Shown: one piece after another, positions 5,434-26,168 of the stretch
Layout of the letters: the number at the start of each line of letters is the position of its first letter
How positions within the stretch are numbered: position 1 is the first letter of the stretch
Program-made: the position numbers and the translations under genes
NCBI RefSeq assembly: GCF_017696075.1
Contig: NZ_JAAORI010000003.1
Location: 310,001 to 374,000, forward strand
DNA length: 64,000 nt
Direction of reading: 5' to 3'
From: Prochlorococcus marinus XMU1411
Lineage (GTDB): Bacteria > Cyanobacteriota > Cyanobacteriia > PCC-6307 > Cyanobiaceae
Notes under the pieces: generated by a model
The model's input: the letters and a program-made list of their open reading frames with translations, nothing else
What the model was told of the DNA's origin: nothing
Database searches by the model: none

Positions 5434-5469
5434 TATTTTAGAAACTTTATAGAATTAAACTCATGATAT

Positions 5470-6543
5470 TTAATTTGGTTTTTCAGGATTCATCTCATCC
5501 AAAATGCCTTTCAAAACATTAGGTCTATTGCATTTGTAGTAAGCCTCGTCTGTTGTAATAATGCTTTGGGATACAAGTTGAGAAAGAGATTGCTCCAATG
5601 TTTGCATTCCAAATTTGCCTCCAATTTGAAGTTGGGAATAAACTTGTGAAGCTTTGGCTTCTCTAATTAAATTAGCGATTGCATTATTGTTTACTAATAT
5701 TTCTGCAGCCAAAGATCTTTTATTATCAATTGTTTTGCAAAGGGTTTGTGAAATAACACCTATCAATGATGAGGAAAGTTGGACTCTAATTTGCATTTGT
5801 TGAGAAGTTGGGAAAACATCAATAATCCTGTCAATGGTTTGAGATGCAGAAGCTGTGTGTAAAGTCCCTAAGACAAGGTGTCCTGTTTCTGCAGCGGTAA
5901 TAGCTAAACTTATAGTCTCTAGATCTCTCATTTCACCTACCAAAATAATATCTGGATCTTCTCTTAATGCAGATCTTAAGGCGTTAGAAAAAGATTTTGT
6001 ATCTTCCCCAACTTCTCTTTGTCTTACAAGACAATTTTTATTACTATAGATAAACTCTATTGGATCCTCAATTGTAAGAATATGGTGAGCAAAATTCGAA
6101 TTAATCCAATCAATTCCACTGGCAAGAGTCGTAGTCTTTCCTGATCCTGTAGGTCCAGTTACAAGCATCAAACCTCTTGGCCTACTTAAAAGTTGTTGAA
6201 CACTGTCAGGAAGACCTATTTGGGAAAAATTTGGAATCTCAGTGTTTAAAGCTCTCATAACACAAGAGATCTTCCCTCTATCTAAAAAAATATTCATTCT
6301 AAATCTTGCGATTCCTTCTAATCCATAACTACAATCTAATTCTTTTTCTTCTTTAAATATTTGAATTTTTGAGGGACCGAGAATTTCTTCAAGGTCAAGA
6401 TATAAATCTTTGGTTGAGTATTCTTCGCTCGATGCGGGCAATATTTGACCTTGAACTCTAAAAAATGGGACACTATCTCCTGTTAGGTGTAAGTCGGAAC
6501 CGTTCCGTTTTACTAACTCGGTCATAAGGTTTTTTAATTTCAT
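5470..6543 (-). CDS. pilT: T4P retraction ATPase
   Basis: PilT is the cytoplasmic hexameric ATPase that drives pilus retraction. The 357-residue protein has Walker A GPTGSGKT at 130-137, an Asp-box-like EDPIEF, the Walker B region DPDIILVGEMRD near 195 and the His-box GTLHTAS near 225. Family length is normal. The ATG overlaps the pilB stop by four bases (ATGA), so translation is coupled to pilB. Its presence implies dynamic, retractable pili rather than a pure secretion pseudopilus. Confidence 0.93.
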   Translation of the reverse strand: MKLKNLMTELVKRNGSDLHLTGDSVPFFRVQGQILPASSEEYSTKDLYLDLEEILGPSKIQIFKEEKELDCSYGLEGIARFRMNIFLDRGKISCVMRALNTEIPNFSQIGLPDSVQQLLSRPRGLMLVTGPTGSGKTTTLASGIDWINSNFAHHILTIEDPIEFIYSNKNCLVRQREVGEDTKSFSNALRSALREDPDIILVGEMRDLETISLAITAAETGHLVLGTLHTASASQTIDRIIDVFPTSQQMQIRVQLSSSLIGVISQTLCKTIDNKRSLAAEILVNNNAIANLIREAKASQVYSQLQIGGKFGMQTLEQSLSQLVSQSIITTDEAYYKCNRPNVLKGILDEMNPEKPN

Positions 6544-8279: not shown

Positions 8280-8365
8280 TTAAAAAAGAAAATTTTGGAT
8301 AAGAAAACTTTTAAAAAAGTTGTTAAATACTTTATCTTGAAATATAGCTATAATTTTAATTAAAC

Positions 8366-8890
8366 TTGTATAAAATGCATTATTTTTCAAAAGTCTTTGC
8401 AAGATTCATGAAAAATTATAATCATTTACCCTATTTAATTTGGTACGTGTCACTTACTTTAGCAAGTATTTTTTTTGTAACCGAGCTTAATAGTGAAGAA
8501 CAAAAAAATAATTCATTAGTGATTGAAGATGGTTCTAATACAAGTAAAATTATGAATGATATCTTAAGGCCAATGCCAATTGGGGATTTCAAATCTGCAT
8601 CACAAAGAGTAAATATAAATAGAAATCCTTTTCAAGATCCTGCAAAGTCTGAATTGACAAATATTGATGATATTTACTCTGCTTTGGTATTTAAAGGTAT
8701 AGCTAGATCAGGGGGCACATTAGTTGCAATTATAGAAACAGATGATGTTCAAAAAATTTACGAAGTTGGCGATTTAATGGATAATGGATTTACTATCGAT
8801 TCGATTTCTTATGAAGAAACCTCAGTTGAAGTTAGTAATGGGTCCAGAAAATATAAATTAATTTTATCAGGTCTTAAATATGAAAATTGA
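8366..8890 (+). CDS. pilP: PilP-like T4P assembly protein
   Basis: The 174-residue protein has one N-terminal membrane helix (about residues 20-40), a linker, then the NRNPF motif near residue 83 that is characteristic of PilP/GspC proteins. A small beta-rich HR-type domain follows (LVFKGIARSGG..., with EVGDLMDNGFTI). PilP links the PilNO inner-membrane complex to the PilQ secretin. Start is uncertain: TTG at 8366, with in-frame ATGs at codons 4 and 15. The last 11 bases overlap the next gene. Unusually it precedes rather than follows pilMNO. Confidence 0.75.
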   Translation: MYKMHYFSKVFARFMKNYNHLPYLIWYVSLTLASIFFVTELNSEEQKNNSLVIEDGSNTSKIMNDILRPMPIGDFKSASQRVNINRNPFQDPAKSELTNIDDIYSALVFKGIARSGGTLVAIIETDDVQKIYEVGDLMDNGFTIDSISYEETSVEVSNGSRKYKLILSGLKYEN

Positions 8891-10391
8891 TCCATTATTT
8901 TTAGAAAAATATATTAATGCAAAAAGAGTAGAGGTTTTTGACTATTTTACTTTGATTTCAAAAGTAAAATTTCTAAGAAATAAATTTAAAGAAAGCAAGA
9001 AGTCTTTTCCTTTAATAAAAAAAATTTCTAGAACTGAAAAATATAGAAAAATTATTGAAAGAATTAAAAATTTAAAGATAGATAGTGAATTAAATGACAA
9101 ATCAAAAAAAAGTAAAGATTCAGCTTCTTTAATCAAAGAAATTATGAGTTCTAGTAGCTACAAGAATATAATTTCTCAGATCAATCAATTTAAAAATAAA
9201 AAAGTTAAACAAAAAAAATTAAAAAAAAATAATAAAATACTTTCTTTAAAAAAGAAGGTTGTGAATAATGGTAATTTTGAAAACTTAATTTCTAAGATCA
9301 ATAAATATAGATCAATATTTAGAAGTTCTTTAAAATTGCAAAAAAATGACTTTATCAAATATTTGGTTTCTAATTATAAATTAAATACCCAATTTTTTAG
9401 AGAATTAAAAAAATATCAATTCTTTAATAAAGATTATTTAGTAAAGCAAAACAATAATAAAAAGTTTGATCAAAAAATTGGAGTTGTTTTTTATTCTGAT
9501 CATAATCTTATTTTTATAAGCTTAAATATTAATTTAAATAATAGAATTAAAATCAATGGAGTAACAGAAATACCAATACCAGGAAATGTCATTGGAGATT
9601 CTTTAGTAGAAGATAGTAATGAATTAGCTAATATTGCGCTCGATTCAATTAATCTATTAGATTTAAATTCCGCACCTCTTCTGGTGGTATTATCAAGTTC
9701 TTTTTTTAATATCCATACATTCAAAGCTTCCGATTTAAAGCAGATTTCACAATCAGATAGAAAAGTTCAGTCAAAAAGTCCTTACTTGCCAGATAATACA
9801 CTTGTGGATTTTTTCAGGATGTCAGATGCTCAAATCTCAAATGGTTTTGTTAGAACAACTTACTCTAAAAAAGACTTTATTAAAGGTTGGACTGACACTT
9901 TAGAAATGATCGATCTTCCAGTAATTGGTCTGGTTCCAGCAGCGCCTTTGATTTTCGATGCCATAACAAAAATAACTTTAGAAGAAAAAACTGTTTTAAT
10001 TGATATTGAATCAACGGTTACGACATTATTAATAGGGGGCGCATTATCAGAATTGAATTCTTATAAGCTTCCTTTTGGCTCAAGCTTATACATATCAAAT
10101 AATCTTAAAAATTCAGGGAAAAATTATTTTGAAAGGGTTTCAAATTCAATTGAAGTTATAATGAAAGATAATAATGAGAAGCCACCTTTAAGTATATTCG
10201 TTATGGGCTCTGGATTAGATAATCTTATTAATTCTGAATTCGACATACCTAAAGGGTTTAAGAATATTGCAGAACTAAAATTATCTGATTTTTCTTATTC
10301 TCCAAAAACTATGCAAATACATGAAACAATATCAAATTCAATAGATTCAAGAATTTTTTCGCTTGCATCAATTTTGACATTATGCGTATAA
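8880..10391 (+). CDS. pilM: PilM-like actin-fold protein with long Lys-rich N-terminal extension
   Basis: The 503-residue protein is placed by position and by actin/FtsA-like ATPase motifs in its C-terminal half: VLIDIESTVTTLLIGG near 375 (phosphate-2-type loop), LPFGSSLY, and the adenosine-type FVMGSGLDNL. PilM is the cytoplasmic ring protein that binds the PilN N-terminus. The first 190 residues are extremely rich in Lys, Asn and Ile and look like a separate coiled or disordered extension absent from textbook PilM (about 350 residues). It overlaps the genes on both sides (11 and 10 bases). Confidence 0.7.
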   Translation: MKIDPLFLEKYINAKRVEVFDYFTLISKVKFLRNKFKESKKSFPLIKKISRTEKYRKIIERIKNLKIDSELNDKSKKSKDSASLIKEIMSSSSYKNIISQINQFKNKKVKQKKLKKNNKILSLKKKVVNNGNFENLISKINKYRSIFRSSLKLQKNDFIKYLVSNYKLNTQFFRELKKYQFFNKDYLVKQNNNKKFDQKIGVVFYSDHNLIFISLNINLNNRIKINGVTEIPIPGNVIGDSLVEDSNELANIALDSINLLDLNSAPLLVVLSSSFFNIHTFKASDLKQISQSDRKVQSKSPYLPDNTLVDFFRMSDAQISNGFVRTTYSKKDFIKGWTDTLEMIDLPVIGLVPAAPLIFDAITKITLEEKTVLIDIESTVTTLLIGGALSELNSYKLPFGSSLYISNNLKNSGKNYFERVSNSIEVIMKDNNEKPPLSIFVMGSGLDNLINSEFDIPKGFKNIAELKLSDFSYSPKTMQIHETISNSIDSRIFSLASILTLCV

Positions 10392-11107
10392 ATTATAATT
10401 TTGCTTTTCAAAACTCAAAATTAACCCCTTGGGAGAGGCCATCCCCCCCTAATCTGTTGATTTCAGATGCAAGTCTGAAGAAAAAAATTAGCTACATAAT
10501 TGATCAGACTAAATTAAATAAGGAATTAATTTATCCCTCTATTTTTATTTTATTATCTAGTTTAGGGATGCAATTTTTAACTTTCTTTCCTAACAGAAAT
10601 ATCAAAAACTTAGAAAGTGATCACTTTGAGTACCAAGTTATTTCTCAGAAATTGTCTGATTTAGAATCCTCAAAAGCAAGATTTAGAAGAAAACTTAGAA
10701 ATATTGATAAATATTTTACACAAGCCACAACATCATATATGTTTGCATTTTATTTACAAAACTCTGTACCCAAAGGTGTTCAACTTAATAGCTATTCATT
10801 TAGTGATAATGGTTTTGATATTATTGCAACCGCATTCAATCTTGATGCACTTAATGAATTTATAACTTTAATAGTTGAATCACCAGTAATACTTAAAGAG
10901 TCTGTAAGTATAAATCAAGTTAATAGAAAAGATTTTGCTAAATCAAATAATTCTGATCCCGTTCCTGATTTTGAGATGGAAATTTATGGAGCTATAAAAA
11001 AATTAGAAATAGCAAAAAGAAAAGATTTGTATATAGAATCTAAAGCAAATGGTTTACTTCAAAAATTAAAAAGATTTAACAATCTAAAATTTAAACTAGG
11101 ATCTTAA
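10382..11107 (+). CDS. pilN: PilN-like inner-membrane protein
   Basis: The 241-residue bitopic protein has a roughly 55-residue cytoplasmic N-terminus, one membrane helix (YPSIFILLSSLGMQFLTFF, about 56-75), a periplasmic coiled coil and a ferredoxin-like domain (VPKGVQLNSYSF...). This is the PilN architecture. The order after PilM and before a PilO-like gene supports the call; sequence similarity alone would be weak. PilN pairs with PilO and its N-terminal tail docks in PilM. Confidence 0.72.
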   Translation: MRINYNFAFQNSKLTPWERPSPPNLLISDASLKKKISYIIDQTKLNKELIYPSIFILLSSLGMQFLTFFPNRNIKNLESDHFEYQVISQKLSDLESSKARFRRKLRNIDKYFTQATTSYMFAFYLQNSVPKGVQLNSYSFSDNGFDIIATAFNLDALNEFITLIVESPVILKESVSINQVNRKDFAKSNNSDPVPDFEMEIYGAIKKLEIAKRKDLYIESKANGLLQKLKRFNNLKFKLGS

Positions 11108-11112
11108 GGAAA

Positions 11113-11970
11113 TTGGCACAAAAAAACGATAATAATTTCTTCCAAAAACTTAAAGATATTGATCTTAATGAGATTTTTGGCAGTCTTAACGATTTTAAAA
11201 TAGAGGATCTTAAAAATATCAATTACAAAAGATTGTTTTATGATATTCGCAAATCTAAGCACACCAAACCAATACTAGGCATTACTTTTGCTGGATTGTT
11301 ATCCGTGCTTGTTTTAATACCCAAATTTGAATTATTAGTTTCAACACGTAAGAAGTTAAAGCAGTTTAGAAAAGAATCACAAAACTTGCCTTTTAAGCTT
11401 TCGCAATTAAAGGAGGCGAAGAAAGAATTTAAAGAAGTTGAAAAAATAATGACAGATGTTAATAATTCTTTTTTAAGAAATAATCAATTAGTTTTTATTA
11501 CCCAACTATTAAATGAAGTAGCTTTAAAATCAAATGTAAGACTCAATTCTTTTTCGCCAATACTAAAGCCTGATTCCTCGAAATTATGTAAAAAGTCAAC
11601 AATTCAAAAGCAATCAAAAGAATTCAAATCTAAACAAAAGAAACAAAATTCATCTCAGAAAGGTTCAACTTTAGATAATTTTTATGAGGTCAGTTTTAGT
11701 TCTGATTATTTAGATATCCTAAAGTTCCTTAATTTAGTTCAAGAATATGACGTAACTGTTATTCCTTATTGTTTAGAAGTTGAATCTGAATTAAACATTA
11801 CAACACAAATTTCAAAAAAAGATACTAAAAATGAATCCTTAATTATTCCATTGGACGAACTTGGTAGACCTATTAATAGCTCTTATGAAATTGATGAAAT
11901 AAAGGAAAATTCTAAATTAGGAAAAGTAATTACGAGGATTATTTTTAAGATCCCTTCTTATACCAGATAA
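11113..11970 (+). CDS. pilO: PilO-like inner-membrane protein
   Basis: The 285-residue protein has a 55-residue N-terminal tail, one helix (PILGITFAGLLSVLVLI, about 53-69), a coiled coil (about 75-115) and a C-terminal domain interrupted by a Lys/Ser/Gln-rich insert. Domain order and position match PilO, the PilN partner. Start is TTG at 11113, six bases after the pilN stop and preceded by AAGGA. Confidence 0.7.
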   Translation: MAQKNDNNFFQKLKDIDLNEIFGSLNDFKIEDLKNINYKRLFYDIRKSKHTKPILGITFAGLLSVLVLIPKFELLVSTRKKLKQFRKESQNLPFKLSQLKEAKKEFKEVEKIMTDVNNSFLRNNQLVFITQLLNEVALKSNVRLNSFSPILKPDSSKLCKKSTIQKQSKEFKSKQKKQNSSQKGSTLDNFYEVSFSSDYLDILKFLNLVQEYDVTVIPYCLEVESELNITTQISKKDTKNESLIIPLDELGRPINSSYEIDEIKENSKLGKVITRIIFKIPSYTR

Positions 11971-12084
11971 ATAATTTTCAAACAAACAAATTACTAATAT
12001 AACTGAATAAAAATACTTGAGAATAAATTATTAGTCCTAAGTTAGTACAAATTGCTATCATTATAGGAAATATAATGACGAACA

Positions 12085-13782
12085 TTGTATCCGCAAAGAA
12101 AGTCGATTCAAAGATCTATAGTTTTACTAGTATTTACATGTTTTTTTGGAGCGCCTAATATTGCTCAAGAATTGTTAAATACTAAATCTCAGAAGAAAAT
12201 TTTTTTAGATAATAGTAAATCTTTCTTATCAGAATTAAAAATTTCTAATAAAGATAATTTCTCAAGAAATCAACTTATTTCATCCTCCATAATAAATCCG
12301 AATCTTTTAGATATTGAAGGCCCGAAAGTTTCTTTAGTTTTCAAACAAGCTAAAGCAAAGGAAATTTTTGAGTATTTAGCAAAAATAGCAAATTATGGAT
12401 TCGTTTGGGTTAAAAATAATCCTAATGATGAATCTAAGTTCGATAATGATCGTTTAATATCTATGACTTTGAATGATGAGACTTACAAAAAGGCATTTAA
12501 CTCCCTGCTTCTGGCCAGTGGGTTACAAGCAAAATTACATGATAATGTCTTATATGTTGGACCTAATGTCAGGAACACTGTATTTACTCAAAGAGCTACA
12601 GATGTTTATCAATTAAATCAAATTAGCGCAAGTTCAGCCGCTGACTACTTAGCCAATCTTGGAGCTAGCGTTACTAAAACATTTACTATCACAACTTCAG
12701 TTACTTCTGGGACGTCTCAATCTCAAGCGGTACAAGGTTCTTCTGCTTCGTCAACTACCACAGATCAATCAGAAACTTCTGTAAAAGTATATGGAGCGAG
12801 TATTGGTCCATTGGTTGGACTTATTGCAACAACGGATGAAAGATTACAAACAGTCACCATGGTTGGTGAAGATCAATTAATAAATTTAGCGAAATCATTT
12901 TTGGGAAAATTAGATATCAGACAAAAACAAGTTGCTTTAAGCGTTAAAGTTTTGGACGTAAACTTGTCTGATAAGAATTCCTCAATGAAAGATTATGGGG
13001 GTACTTTGGATGATGCATTTATTATTGGTACACAAGGAAAAATAAAATCTGCATTTGGTGCATATTTGCCTACATTCCCAGATGCAGGCGGTTCGCTTAA
13101 TTCTAATCCAGGTTCTACTATTCAAAACAAATCTTTTTTTGGATTACTTGAGGCAAGTATAGAAAATGGATCAACCAAAGTATTAGCAAGTCCTACTTTA
13201 TTACTGAGTGAGTCTAAACTAACTGATGCGGGAAATGATAAAGGTATTGGAAGAAAAATTGGTAGCGAAGGATTTGTAGTTATTGGAGATAAGGTTCCAG
13301 TAGATGCTACGCAGGGAGAAGGAGGAGCATGTTCCTATAGTTACGATACTGTTGGAGTGAGTTTAGGAGCAAAGATTTTGGGAATCGATGAAAATAATTA
13401 CGTTACTTTCACAATGACTCCTATTGTTACTGGAATATCAGGAAGCTTTAATGTGGTTGGATGTGGATTGGTATCTAAAATAAATAATAGAAGGCTTGAT
13501 ACAGGTGCAATTCGTATAAAAGATGGAGAGACTCTAGTACTTACTGGAATAATCCAAGAGACTGATGTAGATACAACTTACAAATATCCAATACTTGGCG
13601 ATATTCCTTTATTAGGAGCTTTGTTTAGATCAAAACAAACTAATAATGATCAAAGAGAATTAATTATTTTAGTCACTCCAAAAGTCTTAGATGACGATAC
13701 CACTATTAATAACAAAAAATATGATCTTGAATTTATTAGTGAAGATGCAAATAACTTATATAATAATTTAAATTCTAAATAA
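12085..13782 (+). CDS. pilQ: T4P secretin (outer-membrane channel)
   Basis: PilQ forms the outer-membrane gate through which the pilus passes. The 565-residue protein has a signal peptide, an STN/N0-like domain (about 70-150, KAKEIFEYLAKIANYGFVW), an N1-type domain split by a Ser/Thr-rich insert (about 205-235), and a C-terminal secretin core with VLTGIIQETD...PILGDIPLLGALF and LIILVTPKV. It is shorter than proteobacterial PilQ and lacks AMIN domains. Start is TTG at 12085; an upstream stop rules out a much longer start. It ends the pilP-M-N-O-Q run. Confidence 0.92.
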   Translation: MYPQRKSIQRSIVLLVFTCFFGAPNIAQELLNTKSQKKIFLDNSKSFLSELKISNKDNFSRNQLISSSIINPNLLDIEGPKVSLVFKQAKAKEIFEYLAKIANYGFVWVKNNPNDESKFDNDRLISMTLNDETYKKAFNSLLLASGLQAKLHDNVLYVGPNVRNTVFTQRATDVYQLNQISASSAADYLANLGASVTKTFTITTSVTSGTSQSQAVQGSSASSTTTDQSETSVKVYGASIGPLVGLIATTDERLQTVTMVGEDQLINLAKSFLGKLDIRQKQVALSVKVLDVNLSDKNSSMKDYGGTLDDAFIIGTQGKIKSAFGAYLPTFPDAGGSLNSNPGSTIQNKSFFGLLEASIENGSTKVLASPTLLLSESKLTDAGNDKGIGRKIGSEGFVVIGDKVPVDATQGEGGACSYSYDTVGVSLGAKILGIDENNYVTFTMTPIVTGISGSFNVVGCGLVSKINNRRLDTGAIRIKDGETLVLTGIIQETDVDTTYKYPILGDIPLLGALFRSKQTNNDQRELIILVTPKVLDDDTTINNKKYDLEFISEDANNLYNNLNSK

Positions 13783-13816: not shown

Positions 13817-15307
13817 TTATTTGATATGAACGCAATAAGATTCTGCTCCCTTTGATAGTGAACCTAACCATTGGTTATTGAAAATATTTTTTGAATCTTC
13901 GCAGTAGTTGTTATAAAGAGATATGCTGTCGATTAATAAAGCTCCAGTAGCAGATTTACTTCTAGTGAACTGATTATATTCACTTACTATATCAGCGAAA
14001 TCTCCTTCAGATGATCCAGCACAAGGTTGTCCAGAAGATGCAGAAACTATATTTGGCTTCCATGCGCTTAAAATTATCAACTGACCGACATATTCAGATT
14101 CTAAAATTCTGCAAATGTCATCCCAAGGATCTATTGCAGTTTCTCTTTCTGCTCTTAAATTATTTAAAAAGTTCAATGCATTAACTTTATTTGTAGAAGA
14201 AAGTTCTTGAGGTCCATTTTCAAACAAATAATTTGAAGAACTATTATTTGAAATAATTTGAACATACATTTTATTACCATCGGACAGATTATTTGATGAT
14301 GGTAATTGATTTATATGTTGTTTTAAGCTGCTTATCATATATTCAAACAAATTCTTACCATTTATTCTTGGAGATAATACTTCAGGTTCACTAATTGGCT
14401 GCCAATTACCATTTATTATTTCACCGTTGAAGTGAAGGTAATCTTCATGCATAAAAAAAGAATTATCTATTAAATAGGTAATTCTATTAGATCTTAAACA
14501 AACGCCAAGCCAACAGCACTTTCCCCCAAAACATAATGGGGAATTATCAAAGTTATTTAAATTTAACTGAGAAATATTAATTTGACTTTGATCTTGTATC
14601 GAACTGAATCCACCTATTGAAGCTATAGATCTTAGTTGATTATTATTTATTCCTTCTTGAGGATCGCCAGCCTCAATTTGTATTTCGATTGCTTTTTTAA
14701 ATTCATCTACACAAAATGAAATCCCTTTTATTGTTTTTAATGAATCCCATCCATCAGGACAATTGATTTTTTTATAATTTGTCGATGAAGTAATTCCATC
14801 GAGTAATATTGTTTCCTGAAATTTTATAAAGGAAGGTGATATATAATATCCTAATTCATTGTATTGGGGGCCATATCTTATTAGTGTATATGGCGATTTT
14901 TCGTTATTTTGACTTGGTCTAAGAGAATAAACAATTGGACATTCAACTTGATTTAAAGTAAGTTGATCACCCTTTGGCATATAGTCGCTTTTAGCAAGAG
15001 CTTGATTTGGTATGCTTATTCCAAAAAGGAATTCTCCTTCATCGGGCATTTTGCAGTTGTTATTGAATAGAGTAATATCCGCTTCGTTATCAATTATTCT
15101 TTTACTTGATTTCACTTCATCTAAAATAAAATCCAAAGTATCACTTATTCTTCCATTGATTCCCATTTGAGTTTCATCAATTTTATTTCCCCTGAGAGCA
15201 ATTTGTAATATTGAAAATCCAATACTTATTGCAGTTATTGACATAGCCCCTGCAATTATCAGTTCAATTATTGTAAAGCCATTTTTTTTATGTATTTTAT
15301 TATTCAT
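13817..15307 (-). CDS. PilW-like prepilin with C-terminal vWA-like domain (modular pilin)
   Basis: A 10-residue leader ends in Gly and is followed by FTIIELIIAG (Glu at +5), the class III prepilin signature. The protein runs to 496 residues instead of about 200. After the pilin domain comes a Cys-rich loop (CFGGKCCWLGVC, 259-270), then from about 277 a von Willebrand A-like fold: YLIDNSFFM (the DxSxS position reads D281-N-S283-F-F), KMYVQIISNN, T390/D393 and GQLIILSAWKPN (409-419). vWA-bearing modular pilins act as tip adhesins in other bacteria. The metal site looks degenerate (second Ser replaced by Phe). It is last in the minor-pilin operon. Confidence 0.75.
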   Translation of the reverse strand: MNNKIHKKNGFTIIELIIAGAMSITAISIGFSILQIALRGNKIDETQMGINGRISDTLDFILDEVKSSKRIIDNEADITLFNNNCKMPDEGEFLFGISIPNQALAKSDYMPKGDQLTLNQVECPIVYSLRPSQNNEKSPYTLIRYGPQYNELGYYISPSFIKFQETILLDGITSSTNYKKINCPDGWDSLKTIKGISFCVDEFKKAIEIQIEAGDPQEGINNNQLRSIASIGGFSSIQDQSQINISQLNLNNFDNSPLCFGGKCCWLGVCLRSNRITYLIDNSFFMHEDYLHFNGEIINGNWQPISEPEVLSPRINGKNLFEYMISSLKQHINQLPSSNNLSDGNKMYVQIISNNSSSNYLFENGPQELSSTNKVNALNFLNNLRAERETAIDPWDDICRILESEYVGQLIILSAWKPNIVSASSGQPCAGSSEGDFADIVSEYNQFTRSKSATGALLIDSISLYNNYCEDSKNIFNNQWLGSLSKGAESYCVHIK

Positions 15308-15312
15308 TCTAT

Positions 15313-15921
15313 TTAAGATGCTTCACACTTATTGGGAGTTAAAATATTATTTTGATCTATTTGACTTACTGGCATTTGACCTGAAATCCACTCTTTATCT
15401 ATGAATTTCCCTTTAACAATATGACCTGTTGGCGATTTTATGACGAGGCAGTTTAGTAGTTTTGCCCCTGAATTAAAGTATCTTGAGCCTATTACAATAA
15501 CCACTGAACCATCTGAACTTATTCTTCCGTTTGGAGTAATGCGAAAGTCTAAATTTGTGACTTGAAAAATAGAATTATTGATGGCTGGGGCCAAGGAATT
15601 AATGGTTCTGGATTGTCCACTACAAGAAACATCATAACCATAATAGTTTTTATCATTAGGAACGCTATTATAAGAAATCGAATTTGTATTAACATTACAA
15701 ATAGAACCCCATCTTCTAGCATCTAATCTTACTACTCGGAAATATTCTCTTAGTTCTCTAGTATAAGAGTTTACTTGTTCTGTCCTAATCCAATTTAGAA
15801 AACTGGGTAACATTAAACCTGAAAAAATACTTATTATCCCTACTACAATTATAAGTTCAACTATAGTAAATCCAAAAGATTTACTTTTTAAAAGAGATTT
15901 CTTACTCAAAAGTGAGTTCAT
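15313..15921 (-). CDS. GspH/FimU-like minor prepilin
   Basis: With the ATG at 15921 the leader is 17 residues ending in Gly, followed by FTIVELIIVVGIISIFSG with Glu at +5. The remaining roughly 185 residues are a beta-rich pseudopilin domain of normal length with three cysteines. I prefer this ATG to GTG at 15939 because it falls one base after the stop of the preceding gene. GspH/FimU-type pilins form part of the priming tip complex. Stop to next ATG spacing is five bases, so this is one operon. Confidence 0.8.
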   Translation of the reverse strand: MNSLLSKKSLLKSKSFGFTIVELIIVVGIISIFSGLMLPSFLNWIRTEQVNSYTRELREYFRVVRLDARRWGSICNVNTNSISYNSVPNDKNYYGYDVSCSGQSRTINSLAPAINNSIFQVTNLDFRITPNGRISSDGSVVIVIGSRYFNSGAKLLNCLVIKSPTGHIVKGKFIDKEWISGQMPVSQIDQNNILTPNKCEAS

Positions 15922-15922
15922 T

Positions 15923-16498
15923 TTAAATAATTTGTTCACACCAGCTATGAGCTTCTGGAGTCAGGTCAATACTTAACCAATGTTTGTTATTTTCTCCCCA
16001 TTGCACTCTGTAATTTAATGTTGCTATGGAATTATTTAGTGATTCATTATTAATAGGTGCAGAGATATTCAATTCTCTTGTTATTAGAACCTTACCACCG
16101 CTAAATACTTTGCTTCTCTCTTTACCAGGTTGCCAGGATTGAATCATTTCGTTTTCTGAACTAGAGTCCAAAACCCAACTTGGTAGATTAATTATTTCCT
16201 CTGAAAAGTTACTACATGTTTGGTTTGATAATCTATATTCACCAGAGTTTTTATCGTAAGACATAGACCATAAATCTAATTTTAATCTCTCGATATCTCT
16301 TTCAATTTCTTTATTTATGGAACGAATGAGGTTAGAAGAATGAACTGTACCAAGACGTAAAGAGGAGAAATAAATTCCATATGTAATAACCCCTGCTAAA
16401 AGACTTATGCTAAGTATGGCGTCAACCATTCCAAAACCATTTTTTTTAAAACTTATATTTTGAGTAATTATTTGATTTAATTTCTTATTTATATTCAT
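15923..16498 (-). CDS. PilV/GspI-like minor prepilin with Asp at +5
   Basis: The ATG at 16498 overlaps the upstream stop as ATGA, which decides the start (an in-frame codon at 16522 is less likely). The 191-residue protein has a basic leader ending in Gly21 and then FGMVDAILSISLLAG. The usual Glu at +5 is Asp, a conservative change. The rest is a short pseudopilin domain. It sits between the large 711-residue protein and the GspH-like pilin, an arrangement that mirrors minor-pilin and pseudopilin operons. Confidence 0.75.
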   Translation of the reverse strand: MNINKKLNQIITQNISFKKNGFGMVDAILSISLLAGVITYGIYFSSLRLGTVHSSNLIRSINKEIERDIERLKLDLWSMSYDKNSGEYRLSNQTCSNFSEEIINLPSWVLDSSSENEMIQSWQPGKERSKVFSGGKVLITRELNISAPINNESLNNSIATLNYRVQWGENNKHWLSIDLTPEAHSWCEQII

Positions 16499-18630
16499 TG
16501 AAAATCTCGCAGAGTATCCCAAAGGATTATTGATTTACCTCTATAGTATTTAATTCCCCAATTAAATTCATTACCATGCCATTCTTTTATTTTTTCTTTA
16601 AAGCTTTCAGAAAATTCCCATGTTTTATCTCCAGTAGCATCAAAACATAAATTTTTTACCCATGCCGCACCTGTAAAGTTCCTAATTGTTTCTTTATTAA
16701 GAGATTGAACTTTAATATTGAAAGCTTCTAACCAAAGTTTAGCTAAATTGTAATCTGTTAAATTACTTCCTAAATTAATATCATTTTCATCATTTTTAGG
16801 ATTAAGGATTGCGAAATGACCTGGATAGGAATACATCATATTTTGATTATTTAAACGATTGATATTTATTGTTTGAAAGCTTCTTAAATGATAATTACCA
16901 GTAGAATTATCAAAAAGTAAAAACACGTTATTTGTCAATGAATTAAATTGTGTACCTAATGGTAAATCACTTACTCTTTCTCCAACTCCTATAACCTCAA
17001 TATTATTGAAAAGATTGCTTTCTCTTAAACCTCCATATGGTATGAGTCTTAGGTCAGAATTTAAAATAAGGTTTGTAATCTTGTCATCAACTGAATTACC
17101 AATTGTATTTTTAATATATCCGTAAGATCCTCTTGAAGTTATTACCATCCCGCTATTGATTCCCTCTTCTTCATTATTAATTTGAACCCAATTAGAGTTT
17201 GGCGTTACTGAAATAAAAGTAGTCTTTGGTCCATAAATAAAAGAACCAAATTTGCTTGTAGAATCATCACTTGTATTATCAATTAAAAAGCTATGTCCAG
17301 GTAAAAGATTATTATCTATTGGGTAACTAATATTTGCATATGTAATATTGTTTTTAAAAGCTACCCCACCATTGTTATCTTCACGATTGCAAACTAATTT
17401 GTTTATTTCAGATTGATTTTTTTGTTTAAAAAGTATAGTAAGGTTTTCTGGCTTACCAGTTCCGCAATCTCCAGTTCCATTTTTATGGCAGAAAATGCCT
17501 CCATTGCTTATATCAATATCCCCCATTATTTCAAGGATAACTTTTGATTCATCGGTAGTGGAGACTTCGAATTTCGAACCAGGACCTTTTGCGTAAAGTG
17601 AATATATACGATAAGTTTTTTGAGTTGAATTTTCTGCATCTAATTTGCAATTGGTATTAATATCTTCATAATTATTTTTTGTACAAATTAATGTTCCAAT
17701 ATCGATTACATTTTTCAATCTAGGTTGTTTGGGAAGACTCAAAGGTTGTATCCATATTCCCCCATTCCCAGGTTCAGGTAATATTGAATTTTCTCCTTTA
17801 GCTAATTCTTTTAAATTTTGACAGTCATTAATATTATCAAGATTCATCCTCCAAATTATCGAACCTTTTGCATTATAAAAAGGAAGTATATTTAGATTTC
17901 CAAGGAAAAGAGAATCTTTTTTATCTGAATTATTTTCTCCAATTCCAAAGAAACCGAATCCTGATTCTGGTATATCGCTATTTACTTGAATATTGACTCT
18001 TAGTTTATTTGAAGCAGATTCTTTAGTACTATCTATTGGGGATGATATACCTTCAATAAGAATTGAATTAATACCAGAATTTTCAGTGCCTATATATTTT
18101 GTAGAAATTAAGTTAAAAGATTGTTCAAATTCTTTTTCTAAATTTGCTGAAAAGTTTCCTATTATGTTTGACCCAATGAATAAATTCCTAACTAGTTGCT
18201 GTTCTTCCTCCCACGATGAATTTTCATTAGTTGTACAGAAAGGAGCTTTTTGCCTACCACTGCAGTTCTCTTCATCATTACACCAAGAATCATCAGTCCA
18301 ATATTCATTGGATGGATTCGATATATTTGTTAATTCACAATCAGTAGATTTATCTGAGCAATTATTTACAATCCAAAAATAATTAAATAATCTCCCTCGA
18401 GAATTGTCATTAAATAATGAACGTAATCTAGCGATCCCTGAATAAGAAGAAGCTTTTGCTAGAAGTTCTTGTCTATTTATTCTTGATCCAGTTAGGCTTA
18501 ATATTGATGCCGCCATTAAGCCACTTACACCTACTGCAATTCCAATTCCTATTATTAATATTTGAGGTAAAGCAAATCCTTGATTATTTTTTATGAAACT
18601 AATTTGAAAAAATTTTTTCCAATAAAACAT
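16495..18630 (-). CDS. Very large GspK/PilX-like minor pilin
   Basis: The 711-residue protein starts with a basic leader, Gly18, then FALPQILIIGIGIAVGVSGLM. This is a prepilin-type helix but with Gln at +5 in place of Glu. GspK and PilX-type tip pilins are the largest minor pilins and tolerate loss of Glu5 because they sit at the filament tip. The 650-residue ectodomain has about 12 cysteines, beta-rich segments and no family I recognise. It is the first gene of the operon that continues with the PilV-, GspH- and PilW-like genes, and follows 51 bases after the major-pilin-like gene. Confidence 0.7.
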   Translation of the reverse strand: MFYWKKFFQISFIKNNQGFALPQILIIGIGIAVGVSGLMAASILSLTGSRINRQELLAKASSYSGIARLRSLFNDNSRGRLFNYFWIVNNCSDKSTDCELTNISNPSNEYWTDDSWCNDEENCSGRQKAPFCTTNENSSWEEEQQLVRNLFIGSNIIGNFSANLEKEFEQSFNLISTKYIGTENSGINSILIEGISSPIDSTKESASNKLRVNIQVNSDIPESGFGFFGIGENNSDKKDSLFLGNLNILPFYNAKGSIIWRMNLDNINDCQNLKELAKGENSILPEPGNGGIWIQPLSLPKQPRLKNVIDIGTLICTKNNYEDINTNCKLDAENSTQKTYRIYSLYAKGPGSKFEVSTTDESKVILEIMGDIDISNGGIFCHKNGTGDCGTGKPENLTILFKQKNQSEINKLVCNREDNNGGVAFKNNITYANISYPIDNNLLPGHSFLIDNTSDDSTSKFGSFIYGPKTTFISVTPNSNWVQINNEEEGINSGMVITSRGSYGYIKNTIGNSVDDKITNLILNSDLRLIPYGGLRESNLFNNIEVIGVGERVSDLPLGTQFNSLTNNVFLLFDNSTGNYHLRSFQTININRLNNQNMMYSYPGHFAILNPKNDENDINLGSNLTDYNLAKLWLEAFNIKVQSLNKETIRNFTGAAWVKNLCFDATGDKTWEFSESFKEKIKEWHGNEFNWGIKYYRGKSIILWDTLRDFQ

Positions 18631-18681: not shown

Positions 18682-19317
18682 TTATTGTTGACACGGACGG
18701 TAGGTTCTAACCCCTTTACCATCAGCTTCTGTGGCTGCTTTTGCTGTGAATTCATAAACTTCAGAAAGAGCAACTTGCGGAGCATAACAACCTGTTACTG
18801 CACTTCCATTCGCAGCATATGCAGTCCCATTGGGATTCGCTAATACTTGAAACTCTTCGTTCCCATTAATAGTTGCTAACTGAAATGAAATAGCATAATG
18901 TCCAGATGACGAGACAAATGAAGTATCAGTATTAGCTAGTGCAACTGGAGTTGCATTTTTGCAAACTGGGCCACCAGTAGTAGCAGCATCTGAATGTCCG
19001 CATTTTTGAAATTTTGCGTATTCTGAAAGTTGCAGAGCAGTTGAAGGTAAACCTCCATATTCAGTTTGGTAGGCAGTAGCTGCTTTAATCAGTGCCGCAA
19101 CAATTCCAGTGGCCTCTTTTTGTTTAGCTTTATCAGCAGCAGTCATGAATTGTGGAATTGCTATCGATGATAAAATTCCAATCATCATAACGACAACAAT
19201 TAATTCAACTAATGTAAATCCATCTTCTGAATTCAATTGCTGAATAGAAGAAAGATTTTTAATTTTATTAATTCTTAGTTTTGGGCTAAATAAACTAGAC
19301 CTGAAAAATTTTCTCAT
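18682..19317 (-). CDS. pilA: Major-pilin-like protein (PilA-type)
   Basis: The leader is unusually long (33 residues from the ATG at 19317; a TTG at 19374 would make it 52) and ends DG before FTLVELIVVVMMIGILSSIA, with Glu at +5. The ectodomain of about 150 residues is Ala/Thr-rich with cysteines in FQKCGHS, PVCKN, GCYAPQ and a C-terminal RPCQQ, suggesting two disulfides. It is rich in GC and commonly used codons compared with its neighbours, as expected for an abundant filament subunit. Its core is shared by the repeat-tailed proteins at 21299 and 25341. A long AT-rich region upstream (19318-19482) may hold divergent promoters. Confidence 0.85.
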   Translation of the reverse strand: MRKFFRSSLFSPKLRINKIKNLSSIQQLNSEDGFTLVELIVVVMMIGILSSIAIPQFMTAADKAKQKEATGIVAALIKAATAYQTEYGGLPSTALQLSEYAKFQKCGHSDAATTGGPVCKNATPVALANTDTSFVSSSGHYAISFQLATINGNEEFQVLANPNGTAYAANGSAVTGCYAPQVALSEVYEFTAKAATEADGKGVRTYRPCQQ

Positions 19318-19482
19318 TTTTAGAAAAATTTTATACCTACTAGTAATTTTACTGTTTCTTTCAAAATGTGACAATAAAAAACCATTTTGTAATATTGAAA
19401 ATTATATCTAATGTTTAAATTTCTGTTTTTTTACAATTTCTATATATAAATAAAATAAATAAAGTAATTTATATTATCAATA

Positions 19483-20020: not shown

Positions 20021-21280
20021 TTACTCTAAATCATTCTCAATTCTAAAATGTAAATCTTCTGCAGCAAATTGCCAATAATGTTTGGTTGAAAATATTAATT
20101 TATCTATTTTTCTTAAATCAGCCTCTAGCCACTTAGGCCCTAAATGAGATAGTTGAAATTCCTCTTCAAATACTTTTTTGCCATTTCTATAAGCTTCTAT
20201 TTTTAATTCTTCTCCATTCGCCTTACCCCACCCTACAGTAAAATAACCCCCCACAAAATCGAAAGTTTTTCCTTTGAAAGCCTCTATAGTGACTGGATGC
20301 CCAGAACTGCTATATGCTATTCCATGGCCACTATTCAATATATTCACGTATCCTGGACCTCTTGCTGTTTTATTATTTATTGCCAAAAGATAATTCCATT
20401 TTAATCCCAAGTGTCCGTCAGGAATTTTCTCAAGATCTGAATATTGAATCCAATCAAAGTTTTCTATTTTCAATTTACCCGCAATTGGCAACTTATTTTC
20501 ACCTGCAACAATATTCATTAACTCGATTGGAGCATGATTGACATTAATGATTTTTTTTTGCATCCAATTTATTGATTTACTTTTGAAAATTAATTGCCAG
20601 TTTCCTTTGTAAACAGGAAATATAAATTCACTATTTTTCCCTAACTTAACATGTTCCTTTTTTTTATTTGGGCTTATCGCTTTAATAGTTAAATCACTAG
20701 GTAATTTTTGTTCCCTTCCCTTAATTTGTCCTTTGATAGTTAAATTTGGAGCTAAGCCTACCCAGTTTGGAGGCTCTTTTGCAATTAAACCTCCAGGGGA
20801 GCCAATCTTTCGCAAGAAAAATATTTTTTGAGTCTTGTTTCCTGTTGTTATTCGCCAATTTGGCGGTTCTAAAACTTTAAAAGTATATAGTTCATTATTT
20901 TTATTTATATGCCTATAGTTTGAACTTCCCAAGGCCATTTTGAAGTTTGTATATCCGTTTGCATTTGATTTTGCAATGACGCTTATTCCATCTGGTTTAA
21001 TTAATTCTGTTTCAACTCCCACCATAGATTTATCTCCTAAATCATATATTCCATTTCTATTCCTATCATGGAAAATATAAACAGATATATTTAGATTTCC
21101 TGGTTCGAGTCGATTAAAATTACTTTTCTCATATGGGTGAGCTTTGACAAAAATATTGATCGTAGATAAAGAAATGATAAAAAGCTTGGTAAAAAATTTC
21201 TTAAAAATTGAATTCTTAAAATCTAGACTTTTTATTTTTTTCAAGTATTTTGATCTCTCGATTACCATTTCATAAATCAT
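20021..21280 (-). CDS. Secreted SdrD-B-like / surface protein
   Basis: The 419-residue protein has a long basic N-terminal region and a hydrophobic segment (LFIISLSTINIFVKA, about 33-48), a likely signal peptide. An SdrD-B/Cna-B-like module follows with the calcium-loop pattern HDRNRNGIYDLGDKS (about 71-85). The C-terminal 120 residues (YVNILNSGHGIAY... FTVGWGKANGEELKIEAYRNG) resemble a beta-sandwich found in secreted, possibly sugar-binding proteins. The role is unknown. Position inside the pilin cluster suggests a surface or pilus-associated adhesive partner. Confidence 0.6.
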   Translation of the reverse strand: MIYEMVIERSKYLKKIKSLDFKNSIFKKFFTKLFIISLSTINIFVKAHPYEKSNFNRLEPGNLNISVYIFHDRNRNGIYDLGDKSMVGVETELIKPDGISVIAKSNANGYTNFKMALGSSNYRHINKNNELYTFKVLEPPNWRITTGNKTQKIFFLRKIGSPGGLIAKEPPNWVGLAPNLTIKGQIKGREQKLPSDLTIKAISPNKKKEHVKLGKNSEFIFPVYKGNWQLIFKSKSINWMQKKIINVNHAPIELMNIVAGENKLPIAGKLKIENFDWIQYSDLEKIPDGHLGLKWNYLLAINNKTARGPGYVNILNSGHGIAYSSSGHPVTIEAFKGKTFDFVGGYFTVGWGKANGEELKIEAYRNGKKVFEEEFQLSHLGPKWLEADLRKIDKLIFSTKHYWQFAAEDLHFRIENDLE

Positions 21281-21298: not shown

Positions 21299-22651
21299 TT
21301 ACCTAAACCAAGGAGGTATTAGAGATTCATCTTGATTTATTTCAAGTTTAGAGCTTTCGTTTGTTTCTTCTAAGTTCACTCTCTTATTGGAAGTATTAAA
21401 TTTTTCAACGGTTTTTGTGATAGTAAATTTTTGTTTGTTTTCACTAATACCTGAAAGTGATGGTTGTTCATTGATATCAGATATTTGGCTATTTCTACTG
21501 CCTGAGCCATTCCCATTTCCTGTTCCATTCCCTATTCCATTCCCTATTCCATTTCCTATTCCATTCCCTACTCCATTTCCTACTCCATTTCCTACTCCAT
21601 TTCCTACTCCATTTCCTACTCCATTCCCTATTCCATTCCCTATTCCATTTCCTATTCCATTCCCTACTCCATTTCCTACTCCATTCCCTATTCCATTCCC
21701 TACTCCATTTCCTATTCCATTTCCTACTCCATTTCCTACTCCATTTCCTACTCCATTTCCTACTCCATTCCCTACTCCATTTCCTACTCCATTCCCTACT
21801 CCATTCCCTACTCCATTCCCTACTCCATTCCCTACTCCATTTCCTACTCCATTCCCTACTCCATTTCCTATTCCATTTCCTATTCCATTCCCTACTCCAT
21901 TTCCTATTCCATTTCCTATTCCATTCCCTACTCCATTTCCTATTCCATTTCCTATTCCATTTCCTATTCCATTTCCTACTCCATTTCCTACTCCATTTCC
22001 TATTCCATTTCCTACTCCATTTCCTATTCCATTTCCTACTCCATTTCCTACCCCATTTCCTTGGGAGATAAGAGAACCGCAAGTTATATAATCCTTTTCT
22101 CCTTTATCATATCCTGAAAATTCTTTAACTAAACTCACGCCACTTGTGGGACTATAACAACCAATAACGGCATTCCCTTCATCTTTGTAATTTAAACCGT
22201 TTGGATTAGCTTTAACCAGAAACATTGAACCCTCTTCCCTAATATAGGATGAAGACATCTCAATTTTGTAATTACCAGAGGGCGAGAAAAAGCTTATATC
22301 ATTTTTTTCTACAGGAGTTGGTTTTATATTCTTGCAAGATAATCTTCCATTTATATCGACATCATTTGCATTACATTTTTTCAAATCTGAAAATTTAATT
22401 ATTTCGCCAAAGGATGAAGGTAAATAAGCATATAAGCCGTAATTTGATTTTGCTGCTTTGAGAATTGAATTTACAATTAAGGTAGCTTCTTTTTGTTTCG
22501 CTTTATTCTGTGACGAATTGAATATAGGGAATATTATCGATCCTGTTATGCCAAGAAGAGTAATAACAAATATGAATTCTACAAATGAAAACCCATTAAT
22601 TTTTGAGTTCTTATTTAATAAGTATTTATTATGTTTATTTGTATTTATCAA
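21299..22651 (-). CDS. PilA paralogue with long Gly-Asn repeat tail
   Basis: A 20-residue leader ends in Gly before [18 protein letters not shown] (Glu at +5). Residues 45-190 parallel the major pilin, including KQKEAT, four cysteines at equivalent places, FLVKANPNG and AVIGCYSP. Where the major pilin stops, this protein continues with CGSLISQ and about 46 four-residue units Gly-Asn-Gly-Val/Ile, then an 80-residue Ser/Thr/Glu-rich end. The tail would extend from the filament surface as a flexible or beta-solenoid-like stalk. Long antisense frames over the array are by-products of its 12-base period. Confidence 0.8.
21509..22062 (-). repeat. 12-bp tandem repeat array, about 46 copies
   Basis: The unit on the coding strand is GGAAATGGAGTA (Gly-Asn-Gly-Val), with ATA replacing GTA in many copies (Ile) and synonymous GGA/GGG changes. 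The unit is a multiple of three, so copy-number changes keep the frame. The array is nearly pure, which favours slippage, and all three frames on several strands stay open. Confidence 0.95.
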
Positions 22652-22661
22652 AATTTCGTTA

Positions 22662-23477
22662 TTAGATTTCTGTGAAAAATGCTCTCAATATTAAAGGAGC
22701 CACCGAAATTGACTTTATGTTTTTTCCATCTCCATAGACCTCTAAATTTCTTTGAAATTTAATATCAATATTGCCTTTTGTCTTTTTGTTTAAGGTAATA
22801 GGAGGAGATAATTCAACATTATAAAAAAGATATTTTGTCTTTTCTCCATAGCTTTCTATAAAATTTTCATTTAAACCAATTGCAGTTAGTTTATACCCGT
22901 TGTAGTTTAAATCGCATCTAGAGAAAGTCCCGCCATTATTATCACAATATTTGTTATCTAGATTGTTTAAACCTCGCCAATTAGTAAGTTTTTCACTGAA
23001 CTTTTTCGGAACTTCGAAATTATCTTTTGCTTTCAGAACATTTTTAGGACCTTTTTTACCAGTATTCCACGAGTTCTCATTTGAAGAGAATTTTCCTGAA
23101 ACGGTAAATTTATTTTTAAAGATAATGGAAATATATTTATATTCTCTATTATCAAGATTATTTTCTGGTATTTCTAATTTTGAATTATTTGTTAAGTTTA
23201 ATTTCCTGGAATTAATTTTTTTATCATACAAGCTTAAACATAATGAGCCTGCATAATCAGGAGTAGTTCTAAACTCTGGAAATGGATTTTTTGGACATAT
23301 ATCTACTTTTTCAATTTCTACATTGTATGAATAAGCTTTTATTAGGCAAGGAACACCTTTAGGAATTTTACTATTGCAATTTAAAATTGTTGAAGAGGCA
23401 TGTATAGGCTTTAATTGGAAAGAAGTAAAACTTGTAAGATAAGCTATTAAAAAATATGATATTTTACTAATTTTCAT
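22662..23477 (-). CDS. Hypothetical secreted protein of the pilin region
   Basis: The 271-residue protein has a signal peptide (hydrophobic core about 8-22, probable cleavage at IHA-SS) and a Lys/Asn-rich mature domain with about eight cysteines (for example STILNCNSK, GVPCLIK, DICPKN, KYCDNNGG, SRCDLN). Several cysteines suggest disulfides outside the cytoplasm. I do not recognise the fold. It ends 10 bases before the ATG of the repeat-tailed pilin on the same strand, which suggests that the two are cotranscribed and may work together. Confidence 0.65.
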   Translation of the reverse strand: MKISKISYFLIAYLTSFTSFQLKPIHASSTILNCNSKIPKGVPCLIKAYSYNVEIEKVDICPKNPFPEFRTTPDYAGSLCLSLYDKKINSRKLNLTNNSKLEIPENNLDNREYKYISIIFKNKFTVSGKFSSNENSWNTGKKGPKNVLKAKDNFEVPKKFSEKLTNWRGLNNLDNKYCDNNGGTFSRCDLNYNGYKLTAIGLNENFIESYGEKTKYLFYNVELSPPITLNKKTKGNIDIKFQRNLEVYGDGKNIKSISVAPLILRAFFTEI

Positions 23478-25340: not shown

Positions 25341-26168
25341 TTATTCAAACCTAAAACATTGTGAGGGATTTCTGGGGTTCCAGTAAATACATTTAGGTTT
25401 TGCTTCTTTAGCTAATCTAGCCTCCTCAGCTAATTTTGCCTCTTCAGCTAATTTTGCCTCTTCAGCTAATCTAGCCTCTTCAGCTAATCTTGCCTCTTCA
25501 GCTAATCTTGCCTCTTCAGCTAATCTTGCCTCTTCAGCTAATCTTGCCTCTTCAGCTAATCTAGCCTCCTCTGCTTTTTTGATTTGAAACACGGTAAAAC
25601 AAGACATGAAATCTTTCCCCCCAGCATTAAAAGGTGAATATTCTTTAATATTTGATATTCCTGCGATTGGGTTGAAGCAACCAGTTACACTACTGCCCAT
25701 ATTTTGATAGCGAACTCCATTTGGAATTGCTCTTACTTGAAAGATAATATCAGAATTACTTATTTCAGTTGTTTTGAGTTCAACTTTATAATTTCCTGAT
25801 GGAGAGTAAAAATATTTTTCATCACCATCTATTGGAGCAATAGTATTTGGATTGCAAACTTCGCTACCTTTCATCTCAACTTCTTGAGAGATACACTCAT
25901 GCAAGGATGCAAATTTATTAAGAGATTTTACTTTAGTTGGTAAAAATGAAGTTAATGAATAATTAGCTTTTACTGCTTTAAGAACACTATTTACTATTAG
26001 AGTTGCTTCTTTTTGCCTTGCTTTATTAATTACAATCCCAAACAAAGGAAGAGATATACTAAAGGTCAATCCAATAATTAAAGTTATGAGAAGAATTTCA
26101 ACTATCGTATATCCTTGTTGTTCTTCTTTGAAAGTATTTTTTTTGGGAAAAAAGATTTCTTTTTTCAT
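25341..26168 (-). CDS. PilA paralogue with helical EEARLA repeat tail
   Basis: The leader is 19 residues ending in Gly, followed by YTIVEILLITLIIGLTFS. Tyr replaces Phe at +1; Glu is at +5. Residues 45-185 parallel the major pilin (KQKEAT, four Cys, FQVRAIPNG, VTGCFNP). After the conserved FMSC it continues with about nine six-residue units Glu-Glu-Ala-Arg/Lys-Leu-Ala, a strong predictor of a long rigid alpha-helix, and ends with a short Cys-containing cap (KCIYWNPRNPSQCFRF). It is the second repeat-tailed pilin in the locus and closes the pilus region. Confidence 0.8.
   Translation of the reverse strand: MKKEIFFPKKNTFKEEQQGYTIVEILLITLIIGLTFSISLPLFGIVINKARQKEATLIVNSVLKAVKANYSLTSFLPTKVKSLNKFASLHECISQEVEMKGSEVCNPNTIAPIDGDEKYFYSPSGNYKVELKTTEISNSDIIFQVRAIPNGVRYQNMGSSVTGCFNPIAGISNIKEYSPFNAGGKDFMSCFTVFQIKKAEEARLAEEARLAEEARLAEEARLAEEARLAEEARLAEEAKLAEEAKLAEEARLAKEAKPKCIYWNPRNPSQCFRFE
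25410..25572 (-). repeat. 18-bp tandem repeat array, about nine copies
   Basis: The unit read on the plus strand is gctaatcttgcctcttca, with near-identical copies encoding Glu-Glu-Ala-Arg/Lys-Leu-Ala on the minus strand. The period is a multiple of three, so expansion or contraction is in frame. Confidence 0.9.

What the first reader, a model, noticed from the sequence alone, without database searches (positions are those of the whole stretch)
21509..22062. Near-pure 12-bp repeat array of about 46 copies: candidate contingency locus
The array is nearly identical unit to unit, in frame, and encodes Gly-Asn-Gly-Val/Ile. Such arrays change copy number by slippage. Every frame on both strands is open, which creates false ORFs of 195-234 codons. 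Val/Ile alternation along the array could serve as a strain fingerprint.
Basis: seen in the sequence. Interest (0 to 1): 0.52.

Follow-up and report, generated by a model that had tools for sequence, protein, structure and literature searches.

The report
Repeat stalk of a pilus protein
The 46-copy repeat is the flexible middle of a hair-like surface (pilus) protein in a tiny ocean cyanobacterium; relatives keep both ends of the protein but carry quite different repeats in the middle, so it looks like a variable tether rather than an on/off switch.

Summary
The array is real: 46 units of 12 bp at 21509-22060, in frame in a minus-strand gene (22651-21299). It is more than a repeat in an ORF. 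The gene lies in a type IV pilus cluster (PilB, PilT, PilC, PilN, secretin, minor pilins, PilA) of a Prochlorococcus-like genome and encodes a pilin head, the (Gly-Asn-Gly-Val/Ile)46 stalk, and a C-terminal cap ending PPWFR. Relatives in the same family keep the head, the cap motif PPW[IF][RK] (9 of 9 readable C-termini) and an adjacent secreted six-cysteine protein (14 of 19 genomes holding that protein). The stalk between is replaced: GNG[VI], GN, CELYPNDPKC, Cys/Gly or Pro-rich repeats. A sibling pilin nearby has its own repeat tail, (EEARLA)n, with about 4-15 units across 9 genomes. Each 12-bp unit is four codons, so copy-number change cannot shift frame: an ON/OFF contingency switch is not supported. 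Turnover of the array between species is supported (the two GNG arrays were homogenised to different codons); variation within a strain could not be tested. Best reading: a pilus-borne variable tether, between modular pilins and Periscope proteins, not a clean member of either. The role of cap and partner is inferred.

The parts
21509..22060 (-). 46 in-frame 12-bp units encoding (Gly-Asn-Gly-Val/Ile)n: stalk of the pilin, 184 residues
22061..22651 (-). pilin leader and head (...[11 protein letters not shown]..., about 173 mature residues)
   Evidence: 40% identical to the window's own PilA-like protein; long N-terminal helix plus antiparallel sheet in the model, best solved match PAK pilin 1oqw; orthologs
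21299..21508 (-). C-terminal cap, 69 residues, ending IPPWFR
   Evidence: aligned in 6 genomes of the genus and, as PPW[IF][RK], in 9 of 9 readable C-termini
22662..23477 (-). secreted-looking 271-residue six-cysteine protein, partner gene directly upstream of the stalk pilin
   Evidence: directly upstream on the same strand in 13 of 13 loci read and in G266
25341..26168 (-). sibling pilin with (EEARLA)n tail (18-bp repeat, 9.4 copies by TRF) and its own C-terminal cap
18682..19374 (-). PilA-like pilin (N_methyl, TIGR02532)
13817..18630 (-). four minor-pilin-type genes (496, 208, 199 and 711 aa)
   Evidence: the same set in fetched orthologous loci
4072..13782 (.). type IV pilus machinery: PilC-type T2SSF (4072-5433 -), T2SSE ATPases (5470-6543 - and 6540-8279 -), T2SSC-like below cut-off (8366-8890 +), PilN (10382-11107 +), secretin (12085-13782 +)
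20021..21280 (-). 419-residue protein with SdrD_B-like match (below Pfam's cut-off), next gene downstream of the stalk pilin
   Evidence: also in G009, not found in 8 other genomes asked

Best explanation
The array encodes the stalk of a minor type IV pilin. The N-terminal head is built into the pilus (inferred from the pilin signature, the fold and the pilus cluster). The 184-residue glycine-asparagine stalk is an extended, probably unfolded tether that carries the 69-residue cap, ending PPWFR, away from the filament. The cap most likely docks a partner, the best candidate being the secreted-looking six-cysteine protein encoded just upstream (inferred). Because the units are whole codons, the DNA can gain, lose and homogenise units by slippage or unequal exchange, changing length and sequence without breaking the gene; over longer times the whole stalk is replaced by other low-complexity repeats while head, cap motif and partner are kept. 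Shown: gene, in-frame array, conserved ends, replaced middle, array homogenisation, partner linkage. Inferred: surface display, tether function, cap-partner binding, slippage as the mechanism.
For: Pilus cluster around the gene; pilin head paralogous to PilA, pilin-like model with PAK pilin as best solved match. Head and cap under purifying selection against G009: dN/dS 0.106/0.49 and 0.063/0.22. The array is homogenised at the DNA level: all 44 core units use ATA or GTA, about 1e-20 under the window's codon use, while G009 uses ATT/ATC/GTT and mixed 12- and 15-bp units in three higher-order blocks. Stalk replaced between conserved ends in 9 genomes with readable C-termini. Among 2,368 distinct ORFs of 100 or more codons in all held sequence, the 8 that end in PPWx[RK] are all this gene. 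Partner directly upstream in 14 loci. Stalk without predicted fold, pLDDT about 30-40. Sibling pilin repeats its own unit 4-15 times in 9 genomes.
Against: Curated family models do not recognise this protein: Pfam gives only TrAA12 below cut-off, over the array, and NCBIfam pilin models score below their cut-offs. The head model rests on 3 sequences (pLDDT 69.9) and its best match is only E 0.04. Unit order in this array shows no block structure or clustering beyond chance (p 0.92 and 0.60), so there is no sign of recent expansion. Low pLDDT from a 3-row alignment is weak evidence of disorder. Five genomes carry the partner without an adjacent stalk pilin: G371, G425 and weak hits G059, G228, G065. 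G447 has a second head copy with no partner beside it and G390 has a relative but no partner. In G012 head and stalk are in different frames. No expression or binding data.
Confidence: 0.6

Rival explanations
1. Contingency locus: the 12-bp array changes copy number at high rate within a culture and so switches the phenotype of the pilus (length classes rather than ON/OFF).
For: High DNA identity of units; homogenised arrays in two species; copy number of the sibling's repeat differs between close relatives, G012 8, G233 10, G079 4.
Against: Unit is four codons, so no frameshift switching; unit order looks old and unclustered; extension length after the head is similar in four genomes (259, 262, 247, 245 residues) carrying three kinds of stalk, which argues for a kept length there, though G012 has 301, G351 138 and G279 150.
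Confidence: 0.15
2. Neutral low-complexity drift: the middle of the protein is unconstrained and fills with whatever repeat slippage produces; only head and cap matter.
For: Stalk composition changes completely between relatives; sibling copy number varies widely; no predicted fold.
Against: A stalk is present in all 7 genes read through to the C-terminus on one contig (extension 138 to 301 residues); frame is kept in all but G012; every readable stalk is glycine-, proline- or Cys/Gly-rich, as expected of a tether.
Confidence: 0.2
3. Variable decoy: the stalk is an exposed face that varies to escape phage or grazers, in line with the published suggestion of phage escape for PilA1 C-termini (PMC7994388).
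For: Pilus gene, extreme stalk divergence and turnover; the published hypothesis (passages seen).
Against: No phage or grazer data; the cap is conserved, which a pure decoy would not need.
Confidence: 0.2
4. Assembly artefact: copy number or unit order was made by the assembler.
For: In 7 of the 14 paired loci the gene runs into a contig end, so the region is hard to assemble.
Against: All 79-mers of the array are unique; G009 and G316 carry comparable arrays (187 and 151 residues) inside contigs of 1.57 and 2.03 Mb; frame is kept into a conserved cap.
Confidence: 0.06

Closest known systems
Modular type IV pilins (S. sanguinis PilB/PilC; PMC8179133, PMC10191384, passages seen)
   Same: Pilin module at the N-terminus with a C-terminal addition for display; many different additions in related pilins.
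   Different: There a recognisable domain joined by a short linker; here a 184-residue repeat stalk and a short cap with no known domain.
Periscope proteins (SasG, Rib, Sgo_0707; PMC8201768, passages seen)
   Same: Near-identical tandem repeats form a stalk between an anchored end and a distal end; DNA identity allows gain and loss of units.
   Different: There folded domains are repeated and the functional domain is N-terminal; here four-residue units with no predicted fold, on a pilin, with the distal part C-terminal.
CofB/CofJ minor pilin and its secreted partner (described in PMC8179133, passage seen)
   Same: A large minor pilin works with a secreted protein; here pilin and secreted-looking gene are neighbours in 14 loci.
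   Different: No sequence test made; CofB has folded extra domains; binding here is inferred.
Simple-sequence contingency loci (PMC5084427, passages seen)
   Same: In-frame tandem repeat in a surface gene.
   Different: Unit 12 bp, no frameshift, variability within a population not shown.
PilA1/PilE pili of marine picocyanobacteria (PMC7994388, passages seen)
   Same: Same group of organisms and pilus type, linked there to drag, floating and grazing; exposed C-terminus hypervariable.
   Different: No repeat stalk described in the passages seen ('repeat' and 'C-terminal' occur 0 times in the main text).

Membership tests
Type IV pilin | Prepilin leader with Gly before the cleavage site and Glu at +5, hydrophobic helix | tested here: met
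   [13 protein letters not shown] seen in sequence; helix 4-55 in the model; motif rule recalled
Type IV pilin | Match to curated pilin models | tested here: not met
   No pilin model reaches its cut-off for this protein; its paralog PilA does
Type IV pilin | Pilin fold | tested here: inconclusive
   Best solved match PAK pilin, prob 0.94, but E 0.04
Type IV pilin | Encoded with pilus machinery | tested here: met
Modular pilin | Extra module that is a known domain not specific to pili | tested here: not met
   No known domain in stalk or cap at cut-off
Modular pilin | Module joined by a short linker | tested here: not met
   The link to the cap is 184 residues
Periscope protein | Repeats over 50 residues and at least 80% identical, as screened in PMC8201768 | tested here: not met
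   Unit is 4 residues
Periscope protein | Repeat-number variation between strains | not testable with these tools
   One genome per species held; between species unit type and sibling copy number vary
Periscope protein | Folded repeat forming a rod | tested here: inconclusive
   pLDDT about 30-40 over the stalk, alignment of 3
Contingency locus | Copy-number change switches expression by frameshift | tested here: not met
   12 bp = 4 codons
Contingency locus | High-frequency variation within a population | not testable with these tools
   No reads or isolates of the same species available

The most novel reading that the evidence does not exclude
Marine picocyanobacterial pili carry a three-part 'stalk pilin' in which head, terminal tag PPW[IF][RK] and a co-encoded secreted six-cysteine partner are conserved across genera while the stalk is freely exchanged among unrelated low-complexity repeats: a tag-and-tether display module in which length and flexibility, not sequence, are selected, with the tag as docking site for the partner.
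Probability: 0.35. Interest if true: 0.68.

Novelty: new variant of a known kind. Interest (0 to 1): 0.5.

Why it matters
Pili help picocyanobacteria stay afloat and avoid grazers (PMC7994388, passages seen). A pilin whose stalk is rewritten between relatives while a C-terminal tag and a secreted partner are kept gives a concrete handle on what these pili hold out into the water, and a natural series for testing whether tether length or tether sequence matters. It also warns that draft genomes tend to break at this gene: 7 of the 14 paired loci run into a contig end.

Tried and rejected
Contingency switch by frameshift: rejected, unit is four codons. Block duplication inside this array: no repeated block longer than in shuffles; G009 does show three higher-order blocks by eye. 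TrAA12 Pfam match and NF033849 match: low-complexity matches over the array, below cut-off. Spread of the pattern: 53 stretches in the genome-contig scan and 13 in the viral-contig scan; the longest run of such units is 32 residues (in L133, a viral contig), most are 12; none examined further. The search for related loci with the head found no confirmed relative in genome contigs. A pattern search for a Gly-Gly-Asn-Gly spelling in the own genome added nothing. The full-length model's fold search gave no usable match; repeated with the head alone. Literature: the ten searches gave no paper describing this repeat or a PPW-ended pilin in the listings and passages seen; subscription papers are mostly not held.

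Full report
Observation. The array is there: TRF reports period 12, 45.8 copies, 92% matches at 21513-22061. In the coding sense it is 46 units at 21509-22060; 44 encode Gly-Asn-Gly-Val/Ile and the last two GNGT and GNGN. Four spellings make up 43 of 46 units; almost all variation is GGA/GGG at position 3 and GTA/ATA at position 10.

What carries it. The frame is a minus-strand gene (22651-21299, 450 codons from a TTG; the true start is not known). Its first part has a prepilin-type start (SKING, then FSFVEF), is 40% identical to the window's PilA-like protein and 41% to the pilin at 25341-26168, and is modelled as a long helix plus antiparallel sheet with PAK pilin as best solved match, at a weak E of 0.04. 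Curated pilin models do not reach their cut-offs for it. The genes to the left are a type IV pilus cluster: PilC-type protein, two ATPases, PilN, secretin, minor-pilin-type genes and PilA. The window's G+C is 30% and the genome is 1.67 Mb in 6 contigs; with the genes seen this looks like high-light Prochlorococcus (inferred).

Relatives. Of 266 genomes of the genus, 45 have some match to the head at E 0.001, most of them other pilins; 7 hold the ortholog with the same upstream gene: G000, G009, G012, G079, G153, G200, G233. In a draw of 400 genomes of the family, 30 match at 1e-10, adding G316, G351, G279, G348, G447 and G523 as stalk-pilin loci with the partner; G266 was found through the partner gene. 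Stalks: GNG[VI] in G000; GNGI with GGNGI in G009; 151 residues of Gly-Asn in G316; Gly-Asn with Leu or Val in G447; CELYPNDPKC-type repeats in G012, G200, G079 and G233, with Pro- or Thr/Ser-rich stretches in G012 and G200 as well; Cys/Gly repeats in G348 and G279; Pro-rich in G351. G153, G523 and G266 break too early to read the stalk. For G079 and G233 head and cap lie on two contigs, and I assume they are one gene because the second contig continues with the same neighbours. On a tree of 29 heads, siblings and PilA rows the labels sit with the clades, with 9 changes where 7 is the least possible; support is often weak.

Conserved ends. The C-terminus reads PPW[IF][RK] in 9 of 9 genomes where it can be read, and among 2,368 distinct ORFs of 100 or more codons in the held sequence the 8 with that ending are all this gene (G233's cap piece is 86 codons and falls below that size). 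Between G000 and G009, dN and dS are 0.106 and 0.49 for the head and 0.063 and 0.22 for the cap. The gene just upstream, a secreted-looking protein with six cysteines in every copy, is on the same strand within 75 bases, or overlapping by open frame, in 13 of 13 loci aligned and also in G266. Nineteen genomes have a match to that protein together; 14 have the pilin beside it. The five without are G371, G425 and the weak matches G059, G228, G065. A second head copy in G447 and the relative in G390 lack the partner.

How the array evolves. All 44 core units use ATA or GTA; under the window's codon use that has probability about 1e-20. G009's array uses ATT, ATC and GTT, with ATA only near its edges and three higher-order blocks (by eye). 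So each array was homogenised after the two split, as slippage or unequal exchange would do; edge units are the odd ones in both. Against recent activity, unit order in this array shows no repeated block or clustering beyond shuffles, apart from one run of 12 Val units (p 0.018). Copy number inside a species could not be examined. The sibling pilin's EEARLA-type run counts 4 to 15 units over 9 genomes, with 8, 10 and 4 in the close relatives G012, G233 and G079.

Mechanism. Since a unit is four codons, gains and losses never shift frame. The model gives no fold to the stalk (pLDDT about 30-40, alignment of three). The simplest account is a tether: head in the filament, stalk extended, cap at the free end. 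The adjacency of a secreted-looking protein recalls minor pilins that hold a secreted partner, such as CofB with CofJ (described in PMC8179133, passage seen), so I propose the cap docks it; this is not shown. Pili of these organisms raise drag and reduce grazing, and their exposed C-termini are hypervariable, which the authors suggest is phage escape (PMC7994388, passages seen).

Known kinds. It works like a cross between modular pilins (PMC8179133, PMC10191384, passages seen) and Periscope proteins (PMC8201768, passages seen) but fails a defining feature of each: no recognised grafted domain and no short linker; no large folded repeat. It is not a frameshift contingency locus (definition from PMC5084427, passages seen).

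Artefact. The gene runs into a contig end in 7 of the 14 paired loci (G079, G233, G153, G348, G447, G523, G266). For this window the array is resolvable in principle from reads above about 80 bases, since all its 79-mers are unique, but the exact count still needs long reads.

Noticed in passing
25400-25568 (gene 25341-26168): A second pilin with an 18-bp in-frame repeat (EEARLA) and its own conserved C-terminal cap (PKCIYWNPRNPSQCFR in most); about 4-15 units across 9 genomes.
   Followed up: partly
L064 8267-8833 and 7333-8289 (G012): In G012 the head and stalk/cap of the ortholog lie in different frames, near an A tract; pseudogene, sequencing error or a slippage switch cannot be told apart. 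Unbroken copies exist in relatives.
   Followed up: partly
L182 1864-3601 (G390): A related pilin head followed, in another frame, by repeats that look like FG-GAP/VCBS (recalled resemblance, no family search), and no partner gene in that genome.
   Followed up: no
20021-21280: SdrD_B-like 419-residue gene directly after the stalk pilin, present in G009 and not found in 8 other genomes asked.
   Followed up: partly
19483-20010: A divergently oriented pilin-like gene next to PilA, found in the same place in several fetched loci.
   Followed up: no
L142 1091-2197 (G009): A further pilin with an unrelated C-terminal extension far from the cluster, in G009.
   Followed up: no
2781-2869: tRNA-Ser gene close to the start of the pilus cluster; the cluster may be an island, not tested.
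   Followed up: no
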